Of a stretch of 55,049 bases of DNA, positions 37,364 to 40,993 are shown piece after piece. Both the position numbers and the translations under genes were made by a program. How positions within the stretch are numbered: position 1 is the stretch's first letter; the number at the start of each line of letters is the position of its first letter. The DNA is taken from NCBI GenBank assembly GCA_002683655.1, contig NYTS01000058.1, forward strand, positions 2,524-57,572. Reading direction: 5' to 3'. The notes under the pieces were generated by a model. The model was given only the letters and a program-made list of their open reading frames with translations, had not been told where the DNA came from and did not search any database. Source of the DNA: Deltaproteobacteria bacterium. GTDB lineage: Bacteria; SAR324; NAC60-12.

Positions 37364-38083
37364 TCAGGGAGCAGAGGTTTTGTAAGCGACATGAATTGTC
37401 GAGGCACCAAATGCAAAATCGTAGTAGTCAGCCTGTTGAAAACCGACTTCAAGTAGTTTCCGCTTCAGGGTTTCTTGATCAGGATACTTCAAAGAAGACT
37501 GAGGAAGATAGGTGAACATCTCTTGCTCTGGCATTAGCCATTCACCAATCTTTGGGACCACCTTGAAGAAATAGAAACGGCTCAAAACATCTATTAATGG
37601 TAGCCGTACTTTTCCCACATCGAGACTAACCAAGACCCCCCCTGGTTGCAAGATGCGCCTGATCTCCGAGAGTCCCTTCGTGAAATCATCAAGGTTACGC
37701 AGTCCATAACCAATCGTCACCGCAGCAAACCAGTTATCCGGAAAAGGAAGGCGAAGGGCATCCCCTTGAATCCATTGAACCGAATCAAATCGAGTCCGAT
37801 CTGCAGCGATCCCCAACATCGATGCAGCAAAATCAACCCCTGTCACTTCCGCATGAGGATGCTGTTTGATGACAGCCCTAGCAATGTCTCCAGTCCCACA
37901 ACAAAGATCCAAGCAACGTTCTCCTTCCCGAAGTCCCGTCTGACGAGCAACAAAACGCTTCCAATAACGGTGCATTCCAAAGGTAATGAGGTCATTAAAC
38001 CTGTCATACTTCAACGCAATTTCATTGAATTTGTGGCTAACGTATTCAGCTTTATCTGCTGTCGATGGGAGTTGGTAGGTCAA
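37364..38083 (-). CDS. ubiE: UbiE/MenG quinone C-methyltransferase
   Basis: SAM-dependent C-methyltransferase for (demethyl)menaquinone or ubiquinone biosynthesis; which quinone cannot be decided from this gene. The 239 residues contain KYDRFNDLITFGMHRYWKR (family motif, near 25), the SAM site LDLCCGTGDIARAV near 59 and YGLRNLDDFTKGL near 127. Its start overlaps the stop of the upstream NadD-PncC fusion gene (38080-38083), so translation is probably coupled. Downstream on the same strand is apbC. Confidence 0.93.
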   Translation of the reverse strand: MTYQLPSTADKAEYVSHKFNEIALKYDRFNDLITFGMHRYWKRFVARQTGLREGERCLDLCCGTGDIARAVIKQHPHAEVTGVDFAASMLGIAADRTRFDSVQWIQGDALRLPFPDNWFAAVTIGYGLRNLDDFTKGLSEIRRILQPGGVLVSLDVGKVRLPLIDVLSRFYFFKVVPKIGEWLMPEQEMFTYLPQSSLKYPDQETLKRKLLEVGFQQADYYDFAFGASTIHVAYKTSAP

Positions 38084-39435
38084 TGGCTTACTGAGGTAGG
38101 ATACAAATCAAGTTGTCTAGAAAGCAATTTAATAGCAGAAATCGCAAAACGAATCTGGTGTTCCTGTTTGGTGAAGAATGGATTTTCCTGAATTACCTCG
38201 TAGATCTGCTCATGTCGCTGCTCCATCATTTCTGACCTTTGGATAAGCACCAGGTGGCAAACCCCATTCTTATTGCTGCGCAGGTTTCCATCAGGGGGGC
38301 CTGCCATCCCATTTTCAGCCAGCACCACGTCTGCTTCAATATTTTTCATTGCAGCCAAAGCCATCTCCTTTGTCAATTCCTCAGACAGGCTTGATTCGTG
38401 GTCCCCCAGAAATCTCCCGATCAATCGTTCCTTGAAGGAATTGGCATAAGCGACCTGAGAGCCAAGAACGAATTTGGACGAACCGGGTAGCCCAATCAAG
38501 GATCCTGCTATCCGTCCACCAGTGCTTGTTTCCAGAAGATAGATTTTCGGAGGATTTTTTCTCTCAAAAAGCTGGCGAGAGACCTTTCGACTGATTTCTA
38601 GGAGATCTCTCTCTAGTTCCAGAATTCTGGCTTCCCACTCACTGACTTCAGCAATTTTCTTTGAAAGTCTACTCCCAAGATACTCATCAAGATGCTCAAT
38701 TGCATTGTCAGGCAGATAAGCGGGAAGTTGCTGCCCACAGGATACAGCTCGACGAATTATCGTTGAGGAAAGATTTAGATAGCTTTTAAGTGCTATGGGT
38801 AAAAGATCAGGATCTAGAATTTTCTGTTTCAGAGATAGTCCTTCACCAAAACTATCCGCAACCCGCTCACCCGGCCGGGGTACTACCAGCCATTCCGTCA
38901 AGTTTGACATCTCTTTCAAGTCTGCTTCAGAAAATATTTTGGGATCCTGCATTCTGTTGATCAAGTCACTACCGATCAAAACCTGAATCCGCTTACTTTT
39001 AGACTCGCTATCAGACTCGATAGCTGTCCAGATATTTTTGACATTATCCAACAGTCTAACCTGGCCTTCCTTCTTGAATTCACTGATTGAAACGAATAAC
39101 CCTACTTGGCGAAGACGAAGAATTTCTTCAACTTGAGCAACAATGAAATTGAGTCGATTTCCAGAATTTTGATGTAAACTCGCTAGCAGGTCTTGCATCA
39201 GTTGGAGGCGGATATCTTTGGGGAGGGTTACTGATCTTTTGAAAGGATCTGGATGATGACCATTAGAGAGGAGGTAAACGACCTTCGATAATTCAGGTCG
39301 TTGCCTCAAGGCCAGTTCTGCCAATACAAGGTGGTGATAGCCTGCCGGGTTTCCAGTGATGGGAACAAATAGGGTATTTTGGAAATCAGCATTCTCCGGG
39401 CAAGGAGATTCAATAATCCTGGGGTTCACTTGCAA
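38080..39435 (-). CDS. NadD-like adenylyltransferase fused to PncC/CinA-C domain
   Basis: 451-residue two-domain protein. The N-terminal half (about 20-250) is a NadD/NMNAT-type nucleotidyltransferase: FVPITGNPAGYHHLVLAELA aligns with the HxGH region, VLIGSDLI is typical mid-domain, and SSTIIRR (223-229) is the ISSTxxR motif. The C-terminal half (275-440) is a PncC/CinA-C domain (NMN deamidase): TSTGG (303-307) aligns with SCTGG, Y330 and K335 match the catalytic Tyr/Lys spacing, and GMAGP (376-380) is conserved. If active, PncC would turn NMN into NaMN and NadD would adenylate it to NaAD, two consecutive steps of NAD recycling. But HxGH reads GYHH (first His lost) and the PncC serine position reads Thr, so one or both activities may have changed. 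It sits between cimA and ubiE. Confidence 0.8.
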   Translation of the reverse strand: MQVNPRIIESPCPENADFQNTLFVPITGNPAGYHHLVLAELALRQRPELSKVVYLLSNGHHPDPFKRSVTLPKDIRLQLMQDLLASLHQNSGNRLNFIVAQVEEILRLRQVGLFVSISEFKKEGQVRLLDNVKNIWTAIESDSESKSKRIQVLIGSDLINRMQDPKIFSEADLKEMSNLTEWLVVPRPGERVADSFGEGLSLKQKILDPDLLPIALKSYLNLSSTIIRRAVSCGQQLPAYLPDNAIEHLDEYLGSRLSKKIAEVSEWEARILELERDLLEISRKVSRQLFERKNPPKIYLLETSTGGRIAGSLIGLPGSSKFVLGSQVAYANSFKERLIGRFLGDHESSLSEELTKEMALAAMKNIEADVVLAENGMAGPPDGNLRSNKNGVCHLVLIQRSEMMEQRHEQIYEVIQENPFFTKQEHQIRFAISAIKLLSRQLDLYPTSVSH

Positions 39436-39439
39436 AAAA

Positions 39440-40993
39440 TTAGGCTGCTGGTTCAGCCTGTACTTGATTCTGTAGCATCAGCAAATTTAGCATTTTCAAG
39501 GTAGCATTAACTGCTGCCATCACTTGGTCACCATCCACACCAATCGTTTGGAGTCGTCTCTCACCCATCTTCCAGGTGATCACAGCCTCGGTCAACGCAT
39601 CAGTTTTTCCACTCCTAGGAATCCGAATTTCATAGTCCACCAAGTCAGGACAAATGATTTGACGGCGTTTGAGGATTTTCTTGATAGCATTCATAAAAGC
39701 ATCATATCCACCAATGCCTGAACCTGCTTCAGTGTATTCCTTTTCGTCCCAACACAAGCTAACAGAAGCGGTGGACTTAAGATTCAAACCACTCTGGATG
39801 CTGCAACCCTCTAAGCGCAATCGTTGATTAACGTTATCATCCAAGACATCAGTAACAATGAAGGGCAAATCCGCTGGAGTCAGATTTTTCTTTGAGTCCC
39901 CCAGTTGGACGATTCTTTCCAATACTTTTCTTAGATTTTCCTCAGAAAGCTGTAGACCAAGGATCTCAAGATTTTTTACGAGAGATGCTTTGCCACTCAT
40001 TTTTCCCAGTGCATAACTTCGAATTCTGCCAAAACGCTCTGGCTGAATTGGATTGTGATAGAGACCACCTTTCCTGTCCCCATCAGCGTGAATTCCACTT
40101 GTCTGGGTAAAAACATCAGTACCCACGACAGGGGAATTCGTAGCCAATCGCTTACCTGAGAAGGTCTCGATCATCTCGCTCACTGGCACCAAGCTTGTTT
40201 CATCAATGCTGAGGTTAACCCCTAACTTATCACGAAGGACTACTGAAATTTCAGCAAGGGAAACATTTCCAGCTCTTTCACCCAGGCAGTTCATTGTGCA
40301 ATGCAGGTTACGAATTCCGGCTTTGACTGCGTATAGGCAGTTTGCGGTGGCCAAGCCATAGTCGTTGTGAGGATGAAAATCGATTTTAGCCCATGGGAAT
40401 CGCAAGGTCATGTCTTTCAAGCTATCAAATACTTCCTCTGGAGATAGCACTCCGAGAGTGTCTGGCAACATAATGTGCTTAATGTCTAACCTCTCCAAGT
40501 GCCCCATTAGGTTATAAACATACTCTGGCTTATCTCGATAACCATTTGACCAATCCTCGAGATATATATTTACCTGCAAGCCTCTAATCTCGGCGTATTT
40601 GACCGTTAGGCGTATGTCTGCAGCGTGTTCTTCAAGTGTTTTCCGAAGCTGATTCTTGCAGTGATTTTCACTCCCCTTGGTTAGTAAATTCATTACTCTG
40701 GCACCAGAGTCGAAAATCCAGTCAACACTTCTCTTGTAGTCACAAAAACCGAGAACTTCTACACGATCCAGAAACCCTTGGTCACTTGCCCAATCTGCTA
40801 TGTTTTGAACAGCTTCTTGTTCTCCCTGTGAAATTCTCGCTGAAGCAATTTCCAGTCTATCAACCCCAACTCTCTGAAGCAGAGCTTTGGCGATATTCAT
40901 CTTCTCAGAAGGTGTAAACGAGACCCCTTGAGTCTGCTCACCATCACGAAGAGTTGTGTCCATCAAAGAAATATGTTCACCAGCGAGATCCAT
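39440..40993 (-). CDS. cimA: Citramalate synthase, Leptospira type
   Basis: Condenses pyruvate and acetyl-CoA to (R)-citramalate, the entry to threonine-independent isoleucine synthesis. 517 residues, nearly the same length as the Leptospira interrogans enzyme as I recall it, and alike along its whole length: LMDTTLRDGEQTQGVSFT at the start (catalytic Arg and metal Asp), EDWSNGYRDKPEY, FHPHNDYGLA (metal His pair), LGERAGN, SGIHADGDRKGGLYHNPI, and the regulatory C-terminal part GGYDAFMNA with RIPRSGKTDALTE. The C-terminal domain implies feedback control by isoleucine. 2-Isopropylmalate synthase (LeuA) is the main alternative, but the close match favours CimA. No leuBCD genes are adjacent. Confidence 0.88.
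   Translation of the reverse strand: MDLAGEHISLMDTTLRDGEQTQGVSFTPSEKMNIAKALLQRVGVDRLEIASARISQGEQEAVQNIADWASDQGFLDRVEVLGFCDYKRSVDWIFDSGARVMNLLTKGSENHCKNQLRKTLEEHAADIRLTVKYAEIRGLQVNIYLEDWSNGYRDKPEYVYNLMGHLERLDIKHIMLPDTLGVLSPEEVFDSLKDMTLRFPWAKIDFHPHNDYGLATANCLYAVKAGIRNLHCTMNCLGERAGNVSLAEISVVLRDKLGVNLSIDETSLVPVSEMIETFSGKRLATNSPVVGTDVFTQTSGIHADGDRKGGLYHNPIQPERFGRIRSYALGKMSGKASLVKNLEILGLQLSEENLRKVLERIVQLGDSKKNLTPADLPFIVTDVLDDNVNQRLRLEGCSIQSGLNLKSTASVSLCWDEKEYTEAGSGIGGYDAFMNAIKKILKRRQIICPDLVDYEIRIPRSGKTDALTEAVITWKMGERRLQTIGVDGDQVMAAVNATLKMLNLLMLQNQVQAEPAA

What the first reader, a model, noticed from the sequence alone, without database searches (positions are those of the whole stretch)
38080..39435. 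NadD-type adenylyltransferase fused to a PncC/CinA-C domain, both with altered catalytic motifs
Seen: the N-terminal half carries SSTIIRR and VLIGSDLI like NadD, and the C-terminal half carries GMAGP and the Y330/K335 spacing of PncC. Known: PncC (NMN to NaMN) and NadD (NaMN to NaAD) are successive steps of the pyridine nucleotide cycle, so the fusion makes metabolic sense. Odd: the HxGH motif reads GYHH (residues 32-35) and the SCTGG motif reads TSTGG (303-307), so the first His and the nucleophile Ser are both changed. Either the enzyme uses Thr303 or Ser304, or it has moved to another nucleotide substrate. I do not know this fusion as a described NAD enzyme.
Basis: partly seen in the sequence, partly recalled or inferred. 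Interest (0 to 1): 0.65.

Follow-up and report, generated by a model that had tools for sequence, protein, structure and literature searches.

The report
NAD-making enzyme fused to NMN-deamidase relic
One order of uncultured bacteria carries a single protein that joins an NAD-assembling enzyme to a mostly worn-out NMN-deamidase domain, and in three of its genera that protein is the only recognisable enzyme left for the adenylylation step of NAD synthesis.

Summary
The ORF is real: minus strand, 39435..38080, 451 aa. Both domain calls hold by profile search. The N-terminal half is an NMN/NaMN adenylyltransferase (best PDB matches: 9iw1, human NMNAT1). The C-terminal half is a PncC/CinA-C domain. 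The fusion is fixed in one order of a small phylum (39 of 41 genomes; 0 of 11 from other families of the class). In 36 members the adenylyltransferase motifs are invariant, including Gly in place of the first His and a kept second His. The deamidase Ser is Thr in 31, Ser in 4, Ala in 1; the catalytic Lys is Lys in 18, Gln in 18. Only two members keep all four PncC residues checked. The window's genome has a separate NadD but no separate PncC. Three genera (20 genomes, 19 with the fusion) have no detectable NadD, NadE, NadC or PnuC; one encodes NAMPT, which makes NMN. Best reading: a working adenylyltransferase, in those genera making NAD directly from NMN, carrying a deamidase-derived domain that has mostly lost catalysis but is retained under purifying selection. 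I found no report of this architecture in the papers searched.

The parts
38080..39435 (-). ORF of the fusion protein, 451 aa, TTG start; starts 4 nt behind the cimA stop, its own stop overlapping the TTG start of ubiE
38650..39393 (-). N-terminal NMN/NaMN adenylyltransferase domain (residues 15-262): NPAGYHH with invariant G32 and H35, K66, R76, E119, GSDL 155-158, SSTxIR 223-228
   Evidence: profile versus PDB: 9iw1 4e-10, human NMNAT1 1e-9, NadD 1k4k 3e-7; invariance in 36 members
38083..38649 (-). C-terminal PncC/CinA-C-derived domain (residues 263-451): TSTGG 303-307 (PncC Ser31 is Thr), Y330, K335, GMAGP 376-380, TKQEHQ 422-427 where PncC has the phosphate Arg
   Evidence: Pfam CinA 6e-18; profile versus TtCinA 1.6e-15; site table
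39440..40993 (-). cimA-like (R)-citramalate synthase, immediate upstream neighbour; same neighbour in genera g3, g7, g8
   Evidence: NCBIfam NF042433 1e-201, below its cut-off; neighbourhoods

Best explanation
The protein is an NMN/NaMN adenylyltransferase with a C-terminal PncC-derived domain. Shown: homology of both domains, fixation of the fusion in one order, invariance of the adenylyltransferase site, loss or change of the deamidase site in most members, and the pattern of NAD genes. Inferred: the N-terminal half transfers AMP from ATP to a pyridine mononucleotide with the kept second His, Lys66 and the SSTxIR phosphate loop. In the genera without NadD and NadE the substrate must be NMN, giving NAD in one step. 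In the window's genus it would salvage NMN (for example from DNA ligase or from NAD breakdown) straight to NAD, replacing the missing PncC route. The C-terminal domain, probably once a deamidase, would now serve as a dimerisation or NMN-binding module rather than an amidase in the window protein.
For: N-domain: a family profile finds NMNATs (9iw1 4e-10; human NMNAT1 1e-9) ahead of bacterial NadD. P30, G32, H35, K66, R76, E119, GxDL and SSTxxR are invariant while the deamidase Ser/Lys are not. In 20 genomes of g3, g7, g8 the fusion is present in 19 but NadD in 0, NadE in 0, NadC in 0. The other adenylyltransferase-fold (PF01467) proteins read there are CoaD, RfaE2 and HldE, and the fusion itself is the weak extra hit. 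NadE was found in 11/11 and NadD in 10/11 genomes of the other genera of the family, so the searches work. One g7 genome encodes NAMPT (1e-121 to PDB NAMPT), a source of NMN. G000 has no other CinA/PncC. Both domains evolve with dN/dS about 0.2-0.4 in the window's genus.
Against: Gly instead of His/Thr at the first motif position is unusual for this fold. The source of NMN is unknown in 19 of the 20 genomes: no NAMPT and no PnuC found. The genomes are incomplete metagenome assemblies. The PncB search was near its detection limit (23 bits in genomes that have it). In the window's own genome NadD and NadE are present, so the fusion is not the sole enzyme there.
Confidence: 0.6

Rival explanations
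1. A true bifunctional enzyme: the PncC half deamidates NMN to NaMN, possibly with Thr303 or Ser304 as nucleophile and Lys335 as base, and the NadD-like half adenylylates NaMN to NaAD, which NadE finishes.
For: The window protein keeps Y330 and K335. G006 and G033 members keep all four PncC residues checked (Ser, Lys, Thr, Arg). G000 lacks any other PncC and has NadE.
Against: Ser31 and Lys63 each kill AtCinA when changed to Ala (PMC5384747). Ser is Thr in 31 of 36 members and Ala in 1, Lys is Gln in 18 of 36; the window's genus also lacks the Thr340 and Arg377 equivalents (Asn375, Gln424). Genera without NadE would make a dead-end product.
Confidence: 0.2
2. The N-terminal half acts on another nucleotide or nucleotide-like substrate and the fusion is outside NAD metabolism, for example a repair or damage-control enzyme.
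For: The first His is Gly and the loop reads [ST][GA][ND]P rather than GxF[DN]P. Neighbours are cimA, ubiE or trpD, not NAD genes. Several genera keep NadD beside it.
Against: Closest profile matches are NMNATs. Genera without any other detected adenylyltransferase for pyridine nucleotides keep it.
Confidence: 0.15
3. A non-catalytic regulatory protein: both halves bind pyridine nucleotides and sense NMN or NAD.
For: The deamidase site is degenerate; one motif of the adenylyltransferase site is altered.
Against: Strict invariance of the remaining adenylyltransferase residues across about 30% identity is what catalysis would maintain; sole-copy status in 19 genomes.
Confidence: 0.05

Closest known systems
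NMNAT/NadD family (human NMNAT1-3; E. coli NadD; TIGR00482)
   Same: Fold family by profile; P-x-x-x-x-H, conserved Lys and Arg, GxDL and SSTxIR motifs
   Different: Gly at the first HxGH/TxxH position; extra C-terminal PncC-like domain; scores below the NadD equivalog cut-off
PncC / CinA C-terminal domain (PF02464; AtCinA, TtCinA)
   Same: Whole-domain homology above the Pfam cut-off; GG, GxS, Tyr58 and G[MI]AGP conserved
   Different: Catalytic Ser mostly Thr, catalytic Lys half Gln, Arg145 site Lys or Arg in most genera but Gln in the window's genus; never with a COG1058 partner here
NadM-Nudix and COG1058-PncC fusions (PMC3680494)
   Same: NAD-recycling enzymes joined to an adenylyltransferase or to PncC
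   Different: Neither joins an NMN/NaMN adenylyltransferase to PncC
Plant FADS1: adenylyltransferase fused to an inactivated CinA-N pyrophosphatase (PMC9678776)
   Same: Active adenylyltransferase carrying an inactivated CinA-derived domain
   Different: Different CinA domain, different cofactor
Plant At2g01220-like proteins (from memory, unverified)
   Same: A sequence written from memory gives PF01467 5e-9 and a sub-threshold CinA hit (0.02)
   Different: Reverse domain order, canonical HxGH; the recalled sequence was not checked against a database

Membership tests
NMN/NaMN adenylyltransferase (NadD/NMNAT) | Sequence-profile homology to characterised members | tested here: met
   9iw1, human NMNATs, NadD of several bacteria
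NMN/NaMN adenylyltransferase (NadD/NMNAT) | (H/T)xxH motif with both positions | tested here: not met
   GxxH in all 36 members; the second His is invariant
NMN/NaMN adenylyltransferase (NadD/NMNAT) | SSTxxR phosphate-binding motif | tested here: met
   invariant in 36 members
NMN/NaMN adenylyltransferase (NadD/NMNAT) | Curated equivalog cut-off of TIGR00482 (112 bits) | tested here: not met
   36 bits in the window, 74 in G014
NMN/NaMN adenylyltransferase (NadD/NMNAT) | Enzyme activity with NMN or NaMN and ATP | not testable with these tools
   needs assay
PncC NMN deamidase | PF02464 domain | tested here: met
   6e-18, 65 bits against a cut-off of 23.5
PncC NMN deamidase | Catalytic Ser31 (AtCinA numbering) | tested here: not met
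   Thr303 in the window; T 31, S 4, A 1 of 36
PncC NMN deamidase | Catalytic Lys63 | tested here: met
   K335 in the window; 18 K and 18 Q across the family
PncC NMN deamidase | Phosphate-binding Arg145 / TtCinA Arg377 | tested here: not met
   Gln424 in the window by alignment; Lys or Arg in most other genera

The most novel reading that the evidence does not exclude
In genera g3, g7 and g8 this fusion is the sole and essential NMN adenylyltransferase, with NAD made only through NMN because the whole deamido route (NadC, NadD, NadE) has been lost. The deamidase domain has been turned into an NMN-binding regulator of the attached NMNAT, which would be a new architecture and a new, NMN-only bacterial NAD economy.
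Probability: 0.35. Interest if true: 0.7.

Novelty: new variant of a known kind. Interest (0 to 1): 0.5.

Why it matters
It would add an undescribed NMNAT architecture to a central, drug-relevant pathway. It would also name the enzyme for the last NAD step in uncultured bacteria that otherwise appear unable to make NAD, and it shows a deamidase domain drifting out of catalysis while fused to the enzyme that uses the same substrate.

Tried and rejected
AlphaFold on the full protein and on the N-terminal domain, using only the two sequences the tool permits: mean pLDDT 33 and 37, unusable, so no fold search was run. I considered a link between loss of the catalytic Lys and loss of NadE and rejected it: G009 has Gln with NadE, G012 has Lys without. 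A genome-contig scan found only one near relative. A plasmid scan found only ordinary CinA domains. Literature: no paper on an NMNAT-PncC fusion and none on SAR324 NAD synthesis. The first alignment attempt read minus-strand loci on the wrong strand and was redone.

Full report
Observation. The ORF lies on the minus strand, 39435..38080, 451 aa with a TTG start. Pfam finds CinA in residues 282-405 at 6e-18 and no adenylyltransferase domain in this particular protein. NCBIfam finds the NadD model at 6.5e-9 and the PncC model at 2e-12, both below curated cut-offs. The gene starts just after the stop of a cimA-like gene and its own stop overlaps the start of ubiE.

A real, fixed fusion. A search of related whole genomes finds full-length orthologues at 85-90% identity in the genus and 32-38% in other genera. 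With an N-terminal-domain profile, 39 of 41 genomes of the order (families f1 and f2) carry it and 0 of 11 genomes of families f3 and f4 do. The whole phylum is represented by only 52 genomes, which is compatible with a candidate phylum such as SAR324, but that identification is my guess. The two misses in the order are G029 (54% complete) and G039 (89%). The only named relative fetched is labelled 'uncultured proteobacterium'.

N-terminal half. A profile of the family matches solved NMNATs: 9iw1 4e-10, human NMNAT1 1e-9, E. coli NadD 3e-7. The printed alignments match GaDLi, the segment after it, and SST.iRra....LP....i....LY. In 36 members P30, G32, H35, K66, R76, E119, GxDL and SSTxxR are invariant. 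The first motif position is always Gly. From my own knowledge, human NMNATs carry Thr there, so this position is not strictly His in the superfamily, but Gly is unusual. H35, the second His, is kept everywhere.

C-terminal half. A family profile matches TtCinA at 1.6e-15. AtCinA needs Ser31, Lys63 and Arg145 (PMC5384747); in the TtCinA mechanism Lys301 and Thr340 act and Arg377 binds phosphate (PMC4246079). In the family the Ser is Thr in 31, Ser in 4, Ala in 1; the Lys is Lys in 18, Gln in 18. In the window's genus the Thr is Asn and the Arg position is Gln. Only G006 and G033 keep the full set. Whether Ser or Thr is ancestral cannot be told from this tree. The domain is not junk: dN/dS in the genus is about 0.17-0.28 in the C-domain and 0.24-0.38 in the N-domain, and E302, GG, GxS, Y330, GMA, S387, K389 and H426 are conserved in the 24-member alignment.

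Genome context of NAD synthesis. G000 has a canonical NadD (GGSFNPVHQGH, 233 aa) on another contig, NadE, a probable PncB and no other CinA. In the family, NadD is found in 10 of 11 and NadE in 11 of 11 genomes of g1, g2, g4, g5 and g6, and in none of 20 genomes of g3, g7 and g8. These 20 include G011 (92% complete) and G025 (five contigs), and 19 of them have the fusion. NadC is found only in g4, g5 and g6 and PnuC in none above cut-off. At 80% average completeness, 20 independent random misses of one gene would have a chance of about 1e-14. The PF01467 proteins read in g3/g7 genomes are CoaD, RfaE2 and HldE; the fusion itself can supply the remaining weak hit in G011 and G025. Weak PF02540 hits in g7 (under 36 bits, short, mostly in frames of about 600 aa) are taken as other ATP-pyrophosphatases such as asparagine synthetase; this is inference. 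G015 (g7) encodes a 462-aa NAMPT (1e-121 to PDB NAMPT); NCBIfam calls it nicotinate phosphoribosyltransferase, but the PDB matches are all of the NAMPT kind. By contrast g2 has PncB beside PncA.

Mechanism. The simplest account is that the N-terminal half is a working adenylyltransferase. Where NadE is gone, NaMN and NaAD would be dead ends, so NMN to NAD is the only useful reaction. Where NadD and NadE remain, it can salvage NMN without PncC. The C-terminal domain came from a deamidase and in most members has lost one or both catalytic residues. A role in dimerisation or NMN binding is inferred by analogy with plant FADS1, whose CinA-derived pyrophosphatase domain is inactivated and proposed to bind FAD (PMC9678776).

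What is not shown. No activity, no structure, no NMN source in 19 of 20 genomes, and no exhaustive test outside the phylum (six other-phylum genomes, a plasmid scan and one insensitive pattern scan). The PncB absence is weakly tested. The plant comparison rests on a sequence recalled from memory.

Novelty. Fusions of PncC with COG1058 and of NadM with Nudix are described (PMC3680494), and a 2013 classification of NMN deamidases listed no NMNAT partner in the passages read (PMC3855486). I rate this a new variant of a known kind.

Noticed in passing
genomes G007, G011-G013, G015-G030 (genera g3, g7, g8): No NadC, NadD, NadE or PnuC detected in any of 20 genomes and NAMPT in only one; how they obtain NMN or NAD is unexplained.
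   Followed up: partly
window 39442-39459, minus strand: Terminator-like hairpin with a T run at the cimA stop, just before the fusion's TTG start; such matches are at chance level in this region.
   Followed up: no
L035 870-1358, L038 555-1073, L043 129-638: CoaD of these genera reads YPTSANPPTxGH instead of the usual YPGTFDPxTxGH, another altered nucleotidyltransferase loop in the same lineage.
   Followed up: no
L093, L094, L097: Stand-alone CinA-like proteins of family f2 keep AESSTGG or AESSAGG but have Arg in place of the catalytic Lys63, a second altered PncC-like group.
   Followed up: partly
L037 7768-10137, L040 7484-9801: In genus g7 the fusion lies between cimA and a trpD gene whose start overlaps the fusion's stop in G011.
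   Followed up: no
L019 (G020): The fusion ORF of G020 contains one in-frame TGA; not resolved whether sequencing error or pseudogene.
   Followed up: no
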